Shown here: positions 14,742 to 55,915 of the stretch, piece by piece
How the letters are laid out: every line of letters starts with the position of its first letter
How positions within the stretch are numbered: the stretch's first letter is position 1
DNA from: Vitis vinifera
Lineage: Eukaryota; Streptophyta; Magnoliopsida; Vitales; Vitaceae
Direction: 5' to 3'
DNA: 64,000 nucleotides
NCBI RefSeq assembly: GCF_030704535.1
Contig: NC_081819.1
Coordinates: 17,766,001 to 17,830,000, forward strand
Translations under genes and position numbers: made by a program
Notes under the pieces: model-generated
What the model was told of the DNA's origin: nothing
The model's database searches: none
The model's input: the letters and a program-made list of their open reading frames with translations, nothing else

Positions 14742-14924
14742 CTAATCGGAAACGTCGTCGTCTCGATTCTTTTTGGGCTTGCGATAATTCTCCTCGATGT
14801 GCTTAGCCATGACAAGGCCAGTATTAGCGAGTTTCCTGACATTGGGAACGTTGTAGTTCTGAGCGATATACACTCCACAGACGGTTCCCACCATGAACAT
14901 GAAACTGCTTCTGATTATACCCAT
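14742..14924 (-). CDS. STMP1-like short transmembrane protein, copy 1
   Basis: A complete single-exon gene for a 60-residue protein. Residues 1 to about 22 are hydrophobic (MGIIRSSFMFMVGTVCGVYI), followed by AQNYNVPNVRKL, then a charged tail rich in Lys, Glu and Asp. The GxYxAQNYxxPN core matches what I know of STMP1 (short transmembrane mitochondrial protein 1), a mitochondrial inner-membrane micropeptide of animals. That relationship is by motif only. A second intact copy lies at 21410-21595 and a broken one between them, showing the frame is conserved and therefore real. The mitochondrial role in plants is an inference. Small size means it would be missed by many gene callers. Confidence 0.8.
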   Translation of the reverse strand: MGIIRSSFMFMVGTVCGVYIAQNYNVPNVRKLANTGLVMAKHIEENYRKPKKNRDDDVSD

Positions 14925-15456
14925 TTTTTTATCTTGATCTTGATCTGATCCACCGACACAGAGGGCTTTGCGAGATGGAGACGGAAATGGGTTTAAGAGT
15001 TCAGAGCTTGATGCAGCTTTAAATGGACGCCCTCAGCGTTAACCCCTTCTCCAAGGCAAAGAGTCAACCGCTCCTCATCACTTGATTGGCTTATTCCTAT
15101 TCCAAAAGCTTCATTTAAAAGCACTTCCTTGTTTTCTTTTTTAAAGAAAATTATTTTTTAGGAAACTTATTAGTTTTTTCAATGGCTGGACATCTTTTCC
15201 AATTTTTATTTTTTTTTTACCTTTAAGGATAATATGAAAAAAGAAAAAAAAAATTAAAATTATCTATGGACCAGCGGGTATATGAACTATTATACTAATT
15301 ATAATCTATTAGGAAGGATGATATGTATATTAAGAGTTAATTTTGTAGTGATTTTTTAAAATATTTTTAATATTTATAATATTTAGAAAAATTATCATTC
15401 AAACATTAAAAATATTAGAAACGTTTTTTAAAATTATTATCAAACACATTCTATAT

Positions 15457-15732
15457 TGTTTGTTTTTTTAGCTTTTTACTTAAAATAATTTATTTTCAAA
15501 ATTTAGGTTATTTACTTTTTTTATTTTTTCATAATTTATTATATATTTTTTATTAAATAGAAAAAACTAAAATATGTAGTTTTTTTTAAATAAAAAAAAA
15601 TAACATATTGATTTTTCTTTACTTTTTATTTTTTAATACTTAATAGAAATAAAATACTATAAAAACAAATAACTTAATATTTAACATTATTAAGTATTAA
15701 GGTTATATTTAAATTAAGTAAAAAAACAAACA
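15457..15732. mobile_element. Miniature element, family B, copy 1
   Basis: Starts TTGTTTGTTTTTTTAGC and ends AGTAAAAAAACAAACATC, an imperfect terminal inverted repeat. Internal words (TTTTCAAAATTTAGGTTATTT, AATACTTAATA, TATAAAAACAAATAA) recur in copies at 34.46-34.71, 35.24-35.51 and, inverted, 35.52-35.65 kb. Non-coding; fits a MITE. Confidence 0.6.
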
Positions 15733-16839
15733 TCACTAGGTTCAAAATCCTACAAGATTAAATTTTTAAGAAAATTGGTGTTCAACGTAATATTAAATGA
15801 TATTTATCATTTTCTTTTATTAAAAGGAATTAACTGATAGTTTATGGATTTTTTTCCCCCTTCAAAATAATTAAAATTTAAATTTGATTATATTTTTTTT
15901 GTTCACAAAAAACAAATTTGTATATACAAATTTATGTGTTTATGCCAAAATTTCAAGAAGGAAAAAATTAAATAAATTGAAATTTATACTTGTTTGAAGA
16001 AGTATAACTCTTATAAATTTTTTTCGGTAATATTTGGTTCTCAAAAAATACTCAGATAAAAAAAATCTTAAGAAAAATTATTTTACAATATTTAATAGCA
16101 TCATGGAAAATGATTAAATATAGTTAAAATTAATTAAAAACTTATATATTTTAAAATTATTTAATTTTAATATTAAAAAGTTAAAATAAGTAAAATAAAT
16201 TTGAAATAACTTATAAAAATAATTTATTAATTTTAAATCTTTTTTTATTTTTATTTTTTTGTATTTCATTTTTAATTTTCCTTTCCTTACATGTTCTTTC
16301 AAACTTTTCGAACCAAACATAACCTTATTTGCAAAGGGAAAAAACAACTTTAAATTTTAAACAATATTTTTTAGCAACTTATTTAGGTTTGAGATAAATC
16401 AAGATTAGAAGTATTCTCTTAGACTTTCAAGTGGTCTCTCTCAGATTCCGAGTGTTGTGAAATATCCCATAACGTTTAACTTCCATATCTTGATACTTTT
16501 AATCCCTTTAAAATATTATTTATCAATTAAAAATAAAAATAATAAATACAAATAATTGTTTTTTATATATAAAATCAATTTAATTTAATTTTTTATTTTT
16601 TATTTTTAATATAGATAAAATAATAATAATACAATACCTTTCAATAAAATAAATTATAAAAAATTATAATATTTTAATTATTTATAACATATAATTATTT
16701 TAATGTGACTAAATCTTTTTAAAAATGATTTTCTTAAAAAAATTTAAAATTTTTCAACAAAAAGTTAAATGGGGCTAGGTAGGCACGACTTTGCAAATTT
16801 CTATGAAAATATTTTTAAAATAATTAAAAATTAAGGTTA

Positions 16840-17060
16840 TTTAATTAAAAGAGTTATTGAAAGCCCTCATTCGAAAATCTAATCTTCTATTTTTTTTTTC
16901 TCTTTTTAATAAAAATGTCCTTGAAACAACAATTAAAAATATTTATGTAAAAAAAACGTGACCCTTCAAATAAAAACGTTTCGAGGAAAAATATAGAAAT
17001 GGTTAGATTTACAAAATTGAGAATTATTTCATAGTTTTTATTACTCGATTATGGATTTTA
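16840..17060. mobile_element. Miniature element, family D, copy 1
   Basis: Contains GGTTATTTAATTAAAAGAG and TTGAAAGCCCTCATTCGAAAAT, followed by TTAATAAAAATGTCCTTGAA. A similar series occurs at 47.62-47.83 kb and, inverted, at 22.27-22.50 kb (ending AATCAAATAACCC). Non-coding; limits approximate. Confidence 0.4.
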
Positions 17061-17841
17061 ATTATTGAAGAACTTACCCATATTAATCTATAAAAGACAA
17101 ACGTTGCTCTGCAAATTCAGGATGATGTTCTCAAATTCAAAAGAAGAACAATAGAAAATGTTAGAAAAATCTAAGAGAAAGGAAGAAAAGAAAAAAAAAA
17201 GAAGAAGAGAAAAGTGGAGACGAGACCATCCCAATACCATAAAATTAAGGGATAATTGTGTTTCGGATCTAGTTGGATCAAAAAATTAAGTCTTGATTCA
17301 TATAAGTTCAATATTTAAGCCCTAGACTTAGACGAAGTGGAAGTGTGAAAATTGAGAAGAAGAATATGAATTTTTTATCTTTCCAAAAATGAACTTGACT
17401 ATGAAATAAATAAAAAAGTAAAAAAAGTTAATTTAAATTTTATTTCTTTTGCAAACCTCAATAAAATTTAATATAATTTAGTGATTTGAAAAAAAAATAC
17501 ATTATTTTCCAAAAAAATAAAAATAAATTATTATTATTTAAAAGTCAAACATCTTGAAAAATATATATATTTAAAATTATGTACATAAAAAATAATTGAA
17601 AATATATCAAATTTATTTTTTAAATGATATTTTTATAATATTTTTTAAAAAAATTCTAAAAATAATTATTAAAAAAAAATTTAAGATAATAACATTTCTC
17701 AAATATTATGATAGAAAATAGTTTTGAAACCTATATTGATCTCTTTATATTTTATATCCTCCGGTATCAATTATGCAATTTTTATGACAAAAAACAATTG
17801 TCCCTCGAATTAAAACACAAATACATACACATGTGATAGCA

Positions 17842-18010
17842 ATTTGTGTCTGGTGTCACCGACCTTCTGCAATTACTCTCACAGAACGACGTCGTCTGTC
17901 TTAGCCTTGGAATTCCCATAGTTTTGGTCCATGTGCTGAGCCCTGGCGCATTCAATGTGGATCCGTTTCTCAGTTCTGCAGTTTTTAGCAGCATGAGCCC
18001 CCCTTTGATT
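17842..18010 (-). pseudogene. STMP1-like gene, copy 2, broken
   Basis: The minus strand aligns base for base with the gene at 21410-21595. The 3' half keeps its frame (ECARAQHMDQNYGNSKAKTDDVVL then stop, against CARAKHMEQIYRKSKAKTDD in copy 3). A deletion of about 50 bases removes the start codon and the hydrophobic N-terminus. The conserved YVARNYTVPD core is degraded to HAAKNCRTE. No other start could restore the membrane segment. It is closer to copy 3 than to copy 1, so it probably arose from a local duplication of the copy 2/3 ancestor. Confidence 0.75.
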
Positions 18011-18369
18011 TTGATGAATGAATGTGAGAGAAAATGAGAATGGGTCGGTTTGGAGCTTTTACTGAGGGACAGTGCCCAACATTTCTTGGGAGTTGGGTCA
18101 CGTTCCAACTAATTTTTGAGATTTAATTGTTAAAAAAATACAATAATTTTATTTTTTAAATATGATATTTCAAAATATATATTTAAATTTACCATACTTT
18201 AAAAGAATCCAATCGAAAATTATAGATAATTTTTAACTAATAATATAAAATATATCATATTTCAGTAAATATTTCAAAATATATATATATATAATCCTTT
18301 AAATATGGATGTTTTATAAATAAATTTATGACTTAAAAATAATAAAAATAATAAGGATAAATATTAGTT

Positions 18370-18556
18370 AAAATTAGTGAGGGTAAATGTATCACTTTGA
18401 TAATTTAAAATAAATTTTAAATTAACTTTATTAAACAACCTTAATACTTAAAATAAAAAATAAGTAATTAATTTTAAGTTAATCATTTAAGGTTAATTTA
18501 ACTTAAAATTAATTTAAATCATTAAAAAATAAATATTAAGTTTTATCAAACATCCC
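18370..18556. mobile_element. Miniature element, family A, copy 2
   Basis: Ends AAGTTTTATCAAACATCCC, the reverse complement (one mismatch) of the start of the family A copy at 2089. The body has the same TTAAGTTAA/TTAACTTAAAATTAA words. Non-coding. Confidence 0.55.
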
Positions 18557-18946
18557 ATTTGAAAAAAAAAAATTGATGATTCCTTTCTATTTCTTTTTTA
18601 TTTTTCATCGGTATCCTTTTCCATGTTAAAATATATTTTTATAAAATTTATTAGCAAAATGAAAAAAAAATATATTAATATCACAATCTATTAACATTGT
18701 CATTACTATAGAGAAAATATATTCGTGATTTATTTAGTAACAAATCTAAAGAAAATAAATTTTAAAAAATAATATTATACGATAAAAATAGATTCATATA
18801 AGATTTACTAAGTAGCTTCTAACAATCACTAACCATTTAGATAAGAAAAATATCTATTTAAAATAAAATTGATTTGCTTTTCATAATAATTAATTGGATA
18901 AGAATGAAAAGAAAAAAGGAAAAAAAACATGAGAGTGATTAGAATG

Positions 18947-20351
18947 CTTCTGATTAAGGGTCCCCAACGGGCCGGGCCGGGCCCTTGATATATCTAAGGC
19001 CTGTGACCCGGTCCGTGGGCCCTCAGTTGGGCGAGCTTGGCGGGCTGGGCTGGCGGGCCGGGGTAAAAATTAAAATAATTTTTAATTTTGAGGAGCTAGC
19101 CACCAACTGAGCTGACCCTCTTTTGTGTAACTATTTTGCATTAGTTATATATATATATTAGAAATGTTGTATGATTTTTGAAAAAAAATAAAAGTGAGTT
19201 GGCTGTTCAACGGTCACATGACCGTTGGACATGCCACTCATAATTCAATTTTAAATATATGACCGTTGAACGGTCTTGAAATTTAAAAAAAAAAAAAAAA
19301 ATCCTAATATTTAAATCCCTATAAATATTAAATACCCTCAATTTTTTTCTATTCTCTTAACTCTTAAGCTCTCTCCCATTCCACAATATTTCCGATTATT
19401 GCATTTTGTTTCAAATTATTCAATATTATTGGTGGTGAAAAACAAGTATTGGTGGTTCAAAGAGTTCAAATTTGAAGGAATTTCTGTTTCGATTCTCCAA
19501 TTTAGTAACATACTTCACATTTTCTTTTATTTATTTGTTACATTTTAATTTTACATTTATTATTTTTAGCATAATATTTTATCAATAATTATAATTATGT
19601 CAAGTGGTTCTTGTTCTTCATCTAATGCATGTGATAGCAAAAAATTTACTTCAAATATATGGAATTTTTTTGATAGAATAGAAATAAATTTAGAAAATAA
19701 TAAAAAAGAAATAAAAGAAAAATGTAAAATTTGTAACAAACTTCTTAGTGGTGGCTCAAATGCAGGTACAAGTCATTTAAAAAGGCATCATGAAAATTGT
19801 AAAACTAAAAATAATGTAGATATTAGAAATTATATGCAATTAGGTAAATATGAAAGTGGAAATTTAAAAACATTTTCTTATGATGAATCTTATTGTCGTG
19901 AAGAAATGATTGGTTATATAATAAGAGCAGAACAACATTTCAATTTCACTAATTCGCCATCACCGCCAAGAGATAATGATTAAAATATTTTACTAAATGT
20001 ATGTCATATTTTTATTTTTATTTTTATGGTTGAAAAGTACAAATGATTGACAAATAAGTAGGTGCCAACCTAGTTGGGATGTATTTATTTTGTAGTAATG
20101 TAAACTTTTCCCACATTTTCAAATGTAATGTATACATTCAATGAATAAAATAGTTAACAATAAATATTTTTATTAATGTAACATTTTCCATTTCTTGAAT
20201 TTTTTATATATATATATATATTTTTTAAAGTGGCGGGCCTACGGGCCGACCTGTATGGCCGGGCCGGGCCTAATTTGGGGCCCATGGCCTGGCCCATCCA
20301 GAAATGGGCTCGGGCCGGGCTGCGGGCTTTTTGGAGACCCTTACTTCTGAT
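18947..20351. mobile_element. Non-autonomous hAT transposon with 8-bp target duplication
   Basis: CTTCTGAT at 18947-18954 is repeated exactly at 20344-20351, the 8-bp duplication typical of hAT elements. The element itself (18955-20343, 1389 bp) begins TAAGGGTCCCCAACGGGCC; the reverse complement of its right end begins TAAGGGTCTCCAAAAAGCC, giving imperfect terminal inverted repeats. Subterminal zones at both ends are packed with GGGCCGGGCC-type words, as expected for transposase binding sites. The only gene is a 128-codon BED-finger frame (19597-19983). The catalytic and dimerisation parts of a hAT transposase are absent, so mobility would need a partner element. Confidence 0.88.
19597..19983 (+). 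CDS. Truncated hAT transposase, BED zinc-finger part only
   Basis: Encodes 128 residues. After a Ser-rich start, residues about 20-70 form a BED-type zinc finger: TSNIWNFFDRIE, then CKICNKLL and SHLKRHHENC carry the Cys/Cys/His/His-or-Cys ligands. Residues about 75-128 resemble the start of a hAT transposase but end SPPRDND with a stop, where a full transposase would continue for hundreds of residues. It sits centrally in the 1.39 kb element with a possible TATA-like TATAAATATTAAATA about 280 bp upstream. It may bind the element's GGGCC-rich ends without cutting; that is inference. Very AT-rich codon use. Confidence 0.7.
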   Translation: MSSGSCSSSNACDSKKFTSNIWNFFDRIEINLENNKKEIKEKCKICNKLLSGGSNAGTSHLKRHHENCKTKNNVDIRNYMQLGKYESGNLKTFSYDESYCREEMIGYIIRAEQHFNFTNSPSPPRDND

Positions 20352-21380
20352 AATAACTTAGACCATATGCCCCAAACATCATTAGTTGTCCATACATCGG
20401 TAAGGGATGTATGGATTTTCAGGAAAAGAGGTGTCATGCTGGTCCTCATCAAGCCGCTCGGATCCCTAAAGTGAATAGAAAATTGGATCTATATTGGATC
20501 TTACTTAAATCGCTCTGTTCATCCTCTTCGGAGGAAGGTACAAAGGGATATAAATATACAAAATCAAGGTACAAAGGGACACAAAGATACAAAGGGATGC
20601 CTTTAAAGTACAAAGTAATGAGACTTTTGATAAATTGCTTTTGGAGTACAAGAAAATGCGAATTTGGATAGATTGTTTATGGGGTACTAATAATTTTGTC
20701 CTTGGAGCGAAATTGGAGGACAAGAGAGCAAAATGGATAAAGAAAGGTATGGTTTGTGAATGTATTGGAGTGGAATGACTCAAATTAAGAAAAATTAATA
20801 AATGTAAGTATCAATCATCTACACTTACTCTAAATATCATGAATGATCTTTTTAATATAGTACCATAGTTATTTTTTTAAATTCCTTCCCATGTTTATCA
20901 TTTTAATTTTGTATCTTAATAATTTTTTTATATAAATTTATTTACGTGGAAAAACAAATATATTTTAATTACATCTTTATAAAATATTTTTTCTAAATTT
21001 ATTTATTGATTTTGGATTAAAGAAAAAAACTACCCACTTTTTCAAAGTGTTTATCTTATTAAAATATTAATAGATTTATATGTTTTTATGAAATTAAAAA
21101 ATTTTAAAAAAATAAAAATCCAATCTACCACCTCACTTCAAGCTTATCAGAAATAACAAGTTTTGGATTTGTACAGAAAAAAAAAAAAAACAAAAAAAAA
21201 ATAGAATCCAAGAAAAATCTGTCCTATTTTCTACCACAACCAATTAAAAAGAGGATTTTTATTTTTTTTTAATCTAATAACTTCCACATTTTAATCTATA
21301 AAAGCCTCTAACACTCTTCTAAGTTCAGATTACAGGAGACAATCACAGACAAACCCAATACTAAACAACCCCATAACAAT
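20352..21380. other. Intergenic, no gene recognised
   Basis: Contains short local repeats of the word TACAAAGGGA at about 20540-20600. Otherwise AT-rich with homopolymer runs. Frames here are short and lack family resemblance. Confidence 0.4.
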
Positions 21381-21409
21381 TTGTGTCTACTATCACTGAC
21401 TTTCTGCAA

Positions 21410-21595
21410 CTACTCTTCCAGAACGATGTCGTCTGTCTTGGCCTTGGATTTCCGATAGATTTGCTCCATGTGCTTAGCCCTGGCACATCCTGTGTGGGTC
21501 AGTTTCTTCATGTCTGGAACTGTGTAGTTTCGAGCAACATAAGCCCCCCAAAGGGACCCCAGTACGAAGATGAAACCACCTTTGATTATGCCCAT
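21410..21595 (-). CDS. STMP1-like short transmembrane protein, copy 3
   Basis: A complete single-exon 61-residue protein. A hydrophobic N-terminus (MGIIKGGFIFVLGSLWGAYV) is followed by ARNYTVPDMKKL and a Lys-rich tail ending TDDIVLEE. It shares the MGII start, the G-x-Y-x-A-x-NY-x-VP core and the charged tail with copy 1, but replaces AQNY by ARNY and VPN by VPD. The start is fixed by the shared MGII. Location in mitochondria is inferred from the STMP1 resemblance. Divergence from copy 1 suggests an older duplication, with copy 2 a recent derivative. Expression cannot be judged from sequence. Confidence 0.75.
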   Translation of the reverse strand: MGIIKGGFIFVLGSLWGAYVARNYTVPDMKKLTHTGCARAKHMEQIYRKSKAKTDDIVLEE

Positions 21596-22618: not shown

Positions 22619-22847
22619 TATTTGTTTATTTTTTACTATTTTCTCCGTCACAACCATGGTTAAGACACTTGTATTGTAGATGTAGAGTGATTCTCATATT
22701 CGTAATTTGACGACATAAAATAGGAAAATTAGTCATTTATTTATTTTTTACTATTTTCCCATCACAACCATGGTTAAGACACTTGTATTGTAGATGTAAA
22801 GTGATTCTCATATTCGTAATTTCACAATATAAAATAGAAAAATTAGT
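22619..22847. repeat. Tandem duplication, 114-bp unit, two copies
   Basis: The segment ATTTTTTACTATTTTC..ACAACCATGGTTAAGACACTTG... occurs twice with a 114-base offset and only a few differences between copies. Non-coding. Confidence 0.85.
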
Positions 22848-23433
22848 CCGAATGGAAATTTTTGGGCATATCATAAGATAACCACAAATCCTTAATTTCC
22901 GCCACATTTCTTCCATGAAAAAATGAAATGAAACTCTCTTTTACTGCATTCGAATTTTGTACGACAACCAATTAAAAAGAGGAACTAGCATTTTCCCCTT
23001 TGTTTTTTCGACTTGTGTGTGGTCAAATACAACAATGATCTATAACACCAGTGTGATGAAAAAGCTGGGATTCAATAAAGGTTAGTTCTTGGTTCCTACC
23101 TTAGCTACATCCTCCACCCAAACTATGGTCCCCTAGAGAAGTGGAAATCATCAAGAAGAAACAAAGCAATTCCCTGGGGCCTCAGTGCTCTTGGATTTTT
23201 CTTCTGCCATGGAATCTTTTGAGATATTGCAGAAAAATTTAGAGCTGCTATCATCCACTACATTTTTACGTGGGCCATTGGAATCAATTTTCTTCCATTG
23301 ATGCCAATCACACATTGTTAAAAATCCAGCTTCAACACCATCCATGGCCTAATACTAGCCACTGCTCTCACATGGATGTTACTTTCAATCTCATATACAT
23401 ACAAACTAAGCTGTTTGAGCACATATTTTTCTC

Positions 23434-23441: not shown

Positions 23442-23482
23442 CCCTTTCAGTACTGCTCATGGTTTGCTGCATGAAAAGAGAA

Positions 23483-23923
23483 ATGGCTTCCTGGGGTTCT
23501 AAGGTAGCAGCTCTTCTCATTCTCCTGAACATCTTCTTCTTCTCTTGTGTCTCATGTAATGGGGTTCCATGCCCCCCCAGTACGCCTCCAGCTCCCACTG
23601 TCCCAAAGTCTCCTCCGAAGAAACCAGCTCCCACTGTCCCAACGCCTCCTCCGAAGAAATCAGCTAAGTGCCCAAAAGATACCCTTAAGTTTGGGGCGTG
23701 TGCCAACTGGCTAGGATTGGTGGGGGAGGTTGTTGGGACTCCACCTAGCAGCAAATGTTGTGCACTGGTGGCGGGTCTGGCTGATCTTGAAGCTGCATTG
23801 TGCTTTTGCACTGCAATTAAGGCCAATGTGTTGGGGGCTATCAAGGTTGAAGTGCCTGTGGCCCTGACTTTGCTTGTGAATGCATGTGGGAAGAAGGTTC
23901 CTGAAGGCTTTGTATGTGCATAG
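23483..23923 (+). CDS. Hybrid proline-rich protein with 8-cysteine (LTP-like) domain
   Basis: Encodes 146 residues from the chosen ATG. An in-frame ATG at 23459 would add 8 residues (MVCCMKRE) ahead of the signal peptide and is disfavoured by the TATA position. Order: signal peptide (MASWGSKVAALLILLNIFFF...), a short Pro/Lys-rich stretch with repeated APTVP and PPKK words, then the eight-cysteine motif C...C...CC...CxC...C...C (KCPKDTLKFGACANW, SSKCCALV, ALCFCTAI, NACGKK, FVCA). This is the HyPRP branch of the plant lipid-transfer/protease-inhibitor superfamily, secreted and often wall-associated, with roles in elongation, stress and defence. There is no intron. An AATAAA signal lies at 23989-23994. 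The precise role is unknown. Confidence 0.92.
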   Translation: MASWGSKVAALLILLNIFFFSCVSCNGVPCPPSTPPAPTVPKSPPKKPAPTVPTPPPKKSAKCPKDTLKFGACANWLGLVGEVVGTPPSSKCCALVAGLADLEAALCFCTAIKANVLGAIKVEVPVALTLLVNACGKKVPEGFVCA

Positions 23924-25038: not shown

Positions 25039-26346
25039 TTAGGAAATATCTAAGTTCGTGACATTAAGCTGGCTTTGAACTTGTGCAATGATCTCAGCTG
25101 AGTCCCGGAGTCGCTGAGCTTCCTCATCGGTTAGATGAACGTTAGCCACACCAAGAACCCCGCTCCTTCCAAGCTGCACAGGCAGGCTCAAGAACACCTC
25201 ATCACCATCAATGCCATAGAAGCCCTTAGCAAGAATGGACACAGGATGGATTCGCCTCTGGTCCCTTAGTATGGTTCTAGCCAGGCTGGCCACCGAGTAA
25301 CCTATCGCCCATGACGTACACGCCTTCAGACTAATCACTTCATATGCGCTATTGATAACTTCTTTGTGTATATTCTCCAGGGTCTCCTTACTGAAGGTGA
25401 TCTGTTGATTCTCTAAGAAACCCAGTATTGGAACTCCTCCCACACTTATGCTCGACCACAGCGCCACCGAGCTGTCACCGTGCTCCCCAACAATGAACGC
25501 CTGCAAGAAATGGTAAAGTATAGGACTTATTTCCTGATTGGCTGCCAAGAAATCGGTGAGAAAGGAGGAGAAAATTGGAATGCTGACCACAAAAACTAGG
25601 TGTTGAATAGTAGCCATAAGACTAACCTTTTTTTCAAAGTCTCACCATCAATTTTTTTCATGTTTATATATATATAATATGAATAATTATGTTATTAAAT
25701 ATTAGAAAAAATAATTAAAACATCTTACCTGAACATCTTGAGCGCTAACATCAAGATGATCTGCTATTAAAAATCGAAACCTCGATGAATCAAGATTAGT
25801 CCCCGATCCAATCACCCGATTAGATGGAAAGCCGGACAACTTCCATGCAACATACGTTAGTACGTCCACCGGGTTCGTTACTATAAGTAGTATGGAATCA
25901 GGTGAGGAGTGTGCAAGTTGAGGTATGATGCAAGAAAACAATTTCACATTACGTTGAACTAGGTTTAGTCTAGACTCTCCAGAACCTTGTCGCACCCCAG
26001 CTGTGACTATGCAGAGATCGGAACCGGCGGTGACCGAGTAATCAACCGACGCAAGAATCTTGGTACGCGGCAAAAATGCGGCGGCGTGCTGGAGATCGAG
26101 CATCTCGCCACGTAATTTATCGGGGTTGACGTCGACCAGCGCAAGTTCGTCTATAAGGCCCTGGGTCAGTATGGTTTGGGCAATGGCCATGCCAACATTT
26201 CCGACACCGATGACTGAAATCTTGGTGTGGCGTTTGGTGGGGGAGGGTGGCGCCGCCTGTTGGATGGGCTTGAAGAAGGATTGGGCTATGTCTAGGCCCA
26301 GTGGGCCGAGGGAGGATGCTGAAGAGCTCTTCTCCATGCTAGTCAT
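25039..26346 (-). CDS. L-lactate dehydrogenase
   Basis: NAD-dependent L-lactate dehydrogenase: pyruvate + NADH to lactate in the cytosol, induced by low oxygen in plants. Two exons, 26346-25729 and 25500-25039, joined GT-AG in phase 0 (...SAQDVQ | AFIVGEHG...), giving 359 residues, normal for plant LDH with its N-terminal extension. Visible residues: GVGNVG nucleotide loop 47-52; Asp72 for the NAD ribose; Gln120 at the position that selects lactate over malate; Arg126 of the mobile loop; Asn158 in VTNP; Asp186 and Arg189 in NLDSSR; catalytic His213 in GEHGDSS. All active-site residues are present, so it should be active. A TATA-like CTATAAAG lies about 52 bases upstream. The intron is 228 bp. 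Confidence 0.95.
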
Positions 26347-36485: not shown

Positions 36486-37018
36486 TCAGTTGTGAGAAGG
36501 AGGGTGAATCTTTGGTGGTGCGTAGTCCAAGTTGAAACCCGGGTGTTTATCGCTGTTTTTCGTGCGAGGCACAGTCCAAGAAAATGATCCCAGAGACCCT
36601 TTTTGAACAACATGATCTGAAATTTGTCCTGCGTCCTTGATCTTTTGAGTGGCTTCATGAATTGCACTCTCCTCAATCTTGTTGCCATCCCCCATGGCCG
36701 CCTCGAGTTTGTTTGAAAAGGAAGCCTTCTGGTCATCTGCTGTAACTGAAATCTTATCTGGATTGATCACCTTCTCACCACCATTATTCTGCATGCCCAA
36801 GTATGGAAGATTATTTATTCAAGTACTGCTCACTAATAAATCCTATATATCAAATAAAATTCAAGAAGTGATGATCAAAATGGAAAAGTTCATACACCAA
36901 CCTTGTTGGAGAGAAGGAACTTCTTTTCTGCACCAAGAAGCCGAGCGCTACATGCATTATCATTCAAAGAAATGCACAGAAAGAAAAGAAGAAAACAAGA
37001 TACGATGGACATGTTCAT
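36486..37018 (-). CDS. RGF/GLV/CLEL-type root meristem growth factor precursor
   Basis: A secreted peptide-hormone precursor of 139 residues in two exons, 37018-36902 and 36788-36486 (GT-AG, phase 0). Residues 1 to about 25 are a signal peptide (MNMSIVSCFLLFFLCISLN). The middle is variable and acidic/basic. The extreme C-terminus, DYAPPKIHPPSHN, fits the family's 13-residue hormone: an Asp-Tyr start for tyrosine sulfation, an internal Pro for hydroxylation and a His-Asn end. Such peptides are freed by proteolysis and sensed by LRR receptor kinases to set root meristem activity or gravitropism. An upstream in-frame stop sits just before the chosen ATG. A TATA-like TATAATATA is about 80 bases upstream. 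Which paralogue it is cannot be decided here. Confidence 0.88.
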
Positions 37019-40034: not shown

Positions 40035-45362
<5,328 letters not shown>

Positions 45363-55628: not shown

Positions 55629-55706
55629 ACACATATGGTATGTTTATGGGAGGGAATCAAAACCCCATTTGAGTTTATTAAATGATCAAAGATTTATGGA
55701 CAGAAA

Positions 55707-55738
<32 letters not shown>

Positions 55739-55915
55739 AGGGAGAGAGGGAGAGAGAGAGACGACACATATGGCATTGTTTATGGGAGGGAATCAAACCC
55801 CATTTGAGTTTATTAAATGATCAAAGATTTATGGACAGAGAGAAGGGGGGGTGTGGGGGGAAGAGAGAGAGGGAGGGAGGGAGAGAGGGGGAGAGAGGGA
55901 GAGAGGTCGATCACA
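55629..55915. repeat. Tandem duplication (135-bp offset) with (GA)n tracts
   Basis: ACACATATGG..TTTATGGGAGGGAATC and the following 55 bases occur at 55629 and again at 55764, each followed by a GA/GGGA-rich tract. The duplication and the microsatellite probably expanded together. The 115-codon plus frame is a by-product. Confidence 0.85.

What the first reader, a model, noticed from the sequence alone, without database searches (positions are those of the whole stretch)
14742..21595. Cluster of STMP1-like micro-genes in a plant
Two intact single-exon genes of 60 and 61 codons (14742-14924 and 21410-21595, both minus) share MGII, a hydrophobic N-terminus, the core GxYxAxNYxVP and a charged tail. 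The core resembles the animal mitochondrial micropeptide STMP1. Copy number, order and same-strand arrangement show local duplication. Plant members of this size are usually left as hypothetical, so a conserved respiratory or mitochondrial micropeptide may be under-annotated here.
Basis: partly seen in the sequence, partly recalled or inferred. Interest (0 to 1): 0.75.

Follow-up and report, generated by a model that had tools for sequence, protein, structure and literature searches.

The report
Plant STMP1 microprotein gene pair
A plant chromosome, probably grapevine, carries two intact tiny genes and one broken copy for the plant version of STMP1, a known mitochondrial membrane microprotein; the family was already reported to reach land plants, so this is real but fairly ordinary.

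Summary
Two intact single-exon ORFs of 60 and 61 codons lie at 14742-14924 (-) and 21410-21595 (-). Both match Pfam PF15054 (DUF4535), E 2.7e-27 and 1.4e-20. Human STMP1 (letters recalled) matches the same family, 4.2e-10. A profile built only from three full-length copies of this genome finds it at 28.2 bits against at most 10.8 for 20,000 shuffles, so the STMP1 link is homology, not a short motif. Searches of the whole genome (495.6 Mb, 21 contigs; grapevine by inference) found five copies: these three, an intact gene on contig 16 and a 5'-truncated one on contig 13. Divergence suggests purifying selection (dN/dS 0.12 and 0.26). [quoted passage not shown] Most likely role, transferred from animals and untested here: inner-membrane helper of respiratory complex III.

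The parts
14742..14924 (-). intact single-exon gene, 60 aa, PF15054/STMP1 family ('copy a')
   Evidence: translation; Pfam E 2.7e-27; 73% identical to the contig-16 paralogue
21410..21595 (-). intact single-exon gene, 61 aa, PF15054/STMP1 family, more divergent ('copy b')
   Evidence: translation; Pfam E 1.4e-20; 48-50% identical to copy a
17876..18003 (-). decayed copy (pseudogene) closest to copy b: first 46 nt of the coding region missing, a further 8-nt and 1-nt gap, one TGA in frame
   Evidence: blastn 79% identity to copy b; protein match 51% with 1 TGA; alignment
18004..18083 (-). upstream stretch of the decayed copy, homologous to positions -81 to -1 of copy b
   Evidence: local alignment score 39 against a shuffle mean of 22.3, 0 of 200 shuffles as high
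18955..20343 (.). 1389-bp hAT-like transposon, apparently non-autonomous, inserted between the decayed copy and copy b; not part of the gene family
   Evidence: 13-nt terminal inverted repeats (12 of 13 alike) and 8-bp target duplication CTTCTGAT; BED zinc finger in the ORF at 19597-19983 +

Best explanation
These are plant STMP1 (PF15054) genes, in what is probably Vitis vinifera. Each encodes a 56-61 residue microprotein: a short N-terminal hydrophobic helix with conserved glycines (G13, G17), the family signature GxYxAxNYxVP just after it, then a basic, charged tail. By transfer from animal STMP1/mitolamban, the protein sits in the inner mitochondrial membrane and associates with complex III, supporting its assembly or activity. 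Shown here: the genes, the family, constraint on sequence, number of copies found. Inferred: membrane topology, mitochondrial location, complex III partner, and the history, namely two old duplications (contig 15/16, and copies a/b, order unresolved) followed by a later duplication of copy b that decayed.
For: PF15054 matches for the three full-length copies; recalled human STMP1 in the same family; a profile of the three plant copies finds it at E 1.3e-6, 28.2 bits, best of 20,000 shuffles 10.8 bits. Constraint: a vs contig 16, 15 amino-acid differences against 23.6 expected from random placement of the same changes, P 0.0004; a vs b, 31 against 36.4, P 0.02; b vs contig 16, 28 against 37.8, 0 of 5000. 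In animals STMP1 localises to the inner membrane, associates with complex III, and cardiac knockout lowers complex III activity (review PMC12190854, section 16 read); it is called a CIII assembly factor in PMC13303939 (passages). No solved chain is a clear member, which suits an assembly or accessory factor better than a fixed subunit.
Against: No localisation, expression or translation data from a plant. Even in animals the location is disputed (both inner and outer membrane in PMC9932084, passages; OMM/IMS/IMM in a table of PMC12455275, passages), and effects on complex IV and DRP1 are also reported, so complex III is not the only candidate. The N-terminal segment is only modestly hydrophobic (best 17-residue mean 1.18-1.50, recalled human STMP1 1.45). 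P 0.02 for a against b is weak, and the null counts stop-creating changes as amino-acid changes, which makes it a little generous. PDB chains of unknown residues are not in the search, so an unassigned subunit would be missed. No structure prediction was obtained.
Confidence: 0.6

Rival explanations
1. True STMP1 homologues in plant mitochondria, but acting on another target: complex IV, supercomplexes, cristae shape or division.
For: Animal STMP1 is reported to raise complex IV activity and to activate DRP1 (PMC12190854); the vertebrate relative STREMI oligomerises with MIC10 and showed no effect on complex III (PMC13303939 passages).
Against: Proteomics in heart ties animal STMP1 particularly to complex III. 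Nothing here separates the two for plants.
Confidence: 0.25
2. Only copy a and the contig-16 gene are functional; copy b is a relic on its way to decay like its neighbour. (Compatible with the best explanation for the other copies.)
For: Copy b is the most divergent (73.1 against 94.6 and 92.9 bits) and changed at family positions (AQNYNVPN to ARNYTVPD); its own duplicate is dead.
Against: Frame intact, still 45 bits above the Pfam cut-off, and its differences from the contig-16 gene are biased against amino-acid change (28 against 37.8 expected, 0 of 5000). That bias can also come from the other branch or from past constraint.
Confidence: 0.2
3. Small secreted peptide, as suggested for a tomato DUF4535 gene strongly induced by Trichoderma.
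For: PMC6312540 (one passage): Solyc01g090980, a DUF4535 gene, was the most induced gene in tomato roots at 24 and 48 h and was called a possible short secreted protein.
Against: The family includes animal STMP1, shown in mitochondria (PMC9932084 passages), and the conserved part includes the hydrophobic segment itself, unlike a cleaved signal peptide.
Confidence: 0.07

Closest known systems
STMP1 / mitolamban / Mm47 (animals), Pfam PF15054 DUF4535
   Same: Same Pfam family, similar size, N-terminal hydrophobic segment, GxYxAxNYx(V/I)P core, basic tail (human letters recalled)
   Different: The plant proteins are 9-14 residues longer, with an extra 10 residues after the VPN and an acidic end; function untested in plants
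STREMI / SLC35A4-MP (vertebrate uORF protein)
   Same: Carries PF15054 (PMC4383229, passage) and its C-terminus resembles STMP1 (PMC13303939, passages)
   Different: About 102-103 residues, reported as vertebrate-only, acts in cristae with MIC10; the genes here are short stand-alone genes
Tomato Solyc01g090980 (DUF4535)
   Same: Plant gene assigned to the same domain (PMC6312540, passage)
   Different: Strongly induced by a fungus and described as possibly secreted; its sequence was not compared here
NDUA11 of complex I, PDB 8e73 chain AK
   Same: Stretch GTxxGxxxAxxYxVPxV
   Different: E 0.85 and 0.077, no better than ribosomal proteins uS15 at 0.044; taken as chance

Membership tests
PF15054 (DUF4535) | Score over the curated Pfam cut-off | tested here: met
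   94.6, 73.1 and 92.9 bits for the three full-length copies, cut-off 28.3
STMP1 | Homology with animal STMP1 beyond the short motif | tested here: met
   Plant-only profile finds recalled human STMP1 at E 1.3e-6; best of 20,000 shuffles 10.8 bits against 28.2. Singly, copy a E 3.4e-5; copy b weaker, E 0.0047
STMP1 | Small single-pass membrane protein | tested here: inconclusive
   Most hydrophobic segment at residues 2-18, mean hydropathy 1.18-1.50 against 1.45 for recalled human STMP1; no structure model obtained
STMP1 | Mitochondrial (inner-membrane) location | not testable with these tools
   Needs an import or tagging experiment
STMP1 | Association with complex III or effect on its activity | not testable with these tools
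   Reported for animals (PMC12190854)
Fixed subunit of a solved respiratory complex | Sequence present among solved structures | tested here: not met
   Best E-values 0.85, 0.049 and 0.044 in three searches of 177,635 distinct PDB sequences, the lowest two to unrelated proteins; chains of unknown residues are not searched

The most novel reading that the evidence does not exclude
Flowering plants keep two kinds of STMP1 that split long ago, a conserved housekeeping form (copy a, contig 16) and a divergent form (copy b) that works as a conditional, perhaps stress-induced variant tuning complex III, much as isoform swaps tune respiratory complexes in animals.
Probability: 0.12. Interest if true: 0.55.

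Novelty: new member of a known kind. Interest (0 to 1): 0.25.

Why it matters
If the animal role holds in plants, STMP1 would be a complex III helper shared by plants and animals, and plants with few copies offer a direct genetic test. It would also question the description of a tomato DUF4535 gene as a secreted peptide. The locus itself is an ordinary old tandem pair with one dead copy.

Tried and rejected
Complex I subunit idea: I recalled AT1G67785 as a possible plant member and searched for it; it is SGDH of complex I (PMC3671202, passage). Dropped.

Solved structures: the plant queries gave one respiratory-chain hit, NDUA11 of PDB 8e73 (E 0.85 and 0.077). It ranks beside uS15 ribosomal proteins at 0.044, and the recalled human query gave unrelated top hits at 0.049 and worse. 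All taken as chance.

Promoter: TTGAC occurs once upstream of copy a (-143), copy b (-160) and the contig-16 gene (-211) within 400 bases. A 5-mer in 400 bases means little. The best upstream alignment of copies a and b is matched by only 1 of 200 shuffles, but it is a T-rich run, so no shared promoter is claimed. Of the six pairs tried, only copy b and the decayed copy share convincing upstream DNA (0 of 200).

Faster evolution of copy b: with contig 16 as outgroup b has 16 private changes against 3 (P 0.004), but contig 16 need not be an outgroup; with recalled human STMP1 the counts are 4 and 4. Not claimed.

Synteny of contig 15 and contig 16: the 64-kb window against 260 kb of contig 16 (E up to 1e-4) gave one further pair in the same order and orientation, window 36489-36818 (-) and contig 16 near 16739828 (-), 39% identity over 56 residues, E 6e-5; its end looks like an RGF/GLV peptide (motif recalled; no Pfam match at 0.01). 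Other matches were judged by eye not to be collinear genes: one at window 51 kb (same strand, other order, matching in several frames, repeat-like), short AT-rich stretches, and LRR genes in the opposite orientation. Two genes are thin evidence for a block duplication.

Papers: nine text searches. Makarewich 2022 and Zhang 2012 are not held; their content is taken from a review and a later paper.

Full report
Observation. Both ORFs are present and intact: 14742-14924 (-), 60 aa, and 21410-21595 (-), 61 aa. They are 50% identical over 58 residues. A third copy lies between them on the same strand, 17876-18003 (-). It is 79% identical in DNA to the 21.4 kb gene over 177 columns, lacks the first 46 nt of the coding region and has an 8-nt and a 1-nt gap and one in-frame TGA. 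Its differences from the 21.4 kb gene are spread evenly over codon positions (8 of 41, 8 of 43, 6 of 44). Its upstream 80 bases also match those of the 21.4 kb gene (0 of 200 shuffles as high). So it is a decayed duplicate of that gene.

Genome-wide inventory. The window lies in a held genome of 495,616,077 bases in 21 contigs, at contig 15, 17766001-17830000. Size and contig number suggest Vitis vinifera (19 chromosomes plus two organelles; inference from recalled facts, not tested). A PF15054 search scored 6 candidates and gave 4 matches; a search with the 61-aa protein scored 5 candidates and gave 5 matches: the two intact window genes, the decayed copy, an intact 56-aa gene on contig 16, and a copy on contig 13. 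These are six-frame searches; a copy split by introns or very divergent could be missed. The contig-13 copy matches the contig-16 locus over 763 aligned columns at 96.6% identity with 11 mismatches and 4 gaps, including about 600 bases of 3' flank; the match starts about 20 bases inside the coding region, so the first codons are absent. It is a recent, 5'-truncated DNA duplicate.

Family. The three full-length proteins match Pfam PF15054 (DUF4535) at 2.7e-27, 1.4e-20 and 9.2e-27. Because a Pfam model may be built from both groups, I made a profile from the three sequences of this genome only; it found recalled human STMP1 at E 1.3e-6 and 28.2 bits, while the best of 20,000 shuffles of the same letters scored 10.8 bits. 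Single proteins did so too, copy a at 3.4e-5 and copy b, weaker, at 0.0047. The relation is therefore homology. The columns invariant in the four aligned sequences are M1, F10, G13, G17, Y19, A21, N23, Y24, P27, A40 and E44.

Selection. Nei-Gojobori estimates from a script: copy a vs contig 16, dN 0.137, dS 1.104, ratio 0.12; copy a vs copy b, dN 0.326, dS 1.270, ratio 0.26; copy b vs contig 16, synonymous sites saturated, no ratio. Against 5000 random placements of the same number of changes, amino-acid differences are too few in each pair: 15 against 23.6 (P 0.0004), 31 against 36.4 (P 0.02) and 28 against 37.8 (0 of 5000). The null counts stop-creating changes as amino-acid changes, so it is a little generous, and with about 60 codons the figures are rough. 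The a-b split is about as old as the contig-15/contig-16 split; one further collinear gene pair hints that the latter is a block duplication, which would fit the ancient hexaploidy of core eudicots (recalled).

Mechanism. In animals STMP1 (mitolamban, Mm47) localises to the inner mitochondrial membrane, associates with complex III, and its cardiac loss lowers complex III activity; effects on complex IV and on DRP1-driven fission are also reported (review PMC12190854, section 16 read). PMC9932084 (passages) places it in both inner and outer membranes and found a 10.94% lower complex IV rate on knockdown; a table in PMC12455275 (passages) gives OMM/IMS/IMM. PMC13303939 (passages and one methods section) calls it a known complex III assembly factor. 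No PDB chain is a clear member, although plant respiratory complexes have been solved (titles); this fits an accessory factor rather than a fixed subunit, with the caveat that unassigned chains are not searched. I therefore favour a complex III helper in plant mitochondria, with topology, location and partner inferred. No structure model could be obtained because the machine was busy.

What is known. [quoted passage not shown] PMC4383229 noted PF15054 in the SLC35A4 upstream ORF (passage). PMC6312540 reports a tomato DUF4535 gene as the most induced gene in roots at 24 and 48 h with Trichoderma, suggested to be secreted (passage). I saw no functional study of a plant member in the listings of my searches, which cover only open-licence papers and only these terms. 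So the finding is a correct identification of individual members of a known family; what stays open is what the protein does in plants and whether the divergent copy b has its own role.

Noticed in passing
18955-20343: A 1389-bp hAT-like element with 13-nt terminal inverted repeats (12 of 13 alike), 8-bp target duplication CTTCTGAT, GC-rich ends in an AT-rich setting (by eye) and a BED zinc finger ORF (19597-19983 +) but too short for a full transposase.
   Followed up: partly
L002 1502-2259 (contig 13) and L003 (contig 16): A 5'-truncated copy of the contig-16 STMP1 gene with about 600 bases of 3' flank, 11 mismatches in 763 columns, lies about 1.1 kb from an ORF that resembles a photosystem II 5 kDa (psbT-type) gene (name recalled).
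   Followed up: partly
36489-36818 (-): Open frame containing DYAPPKIHPPSHN, similar to the end of RGF/GLV/CLEL signalling peptides (motif recalled); a relative lies on contig 16 near 16739828, in the same order and on the same strand as the STMP1 gene there.
   Followed up: partly
25039-26343 (-) and 23459-23920 (+): Lactate/malate dehydrogenase domains in two open frames (probably two exons of one gene) and a hydrophobic seed/lipid-transfer type gene beside the cluster.
   Followed up: no
44652-44835, 22640-22848 and 55629-55896: Three local two-copy direct repeats of 92, 95 and 133 nt (93%, 92% and 78% alike).
   Followed up: no
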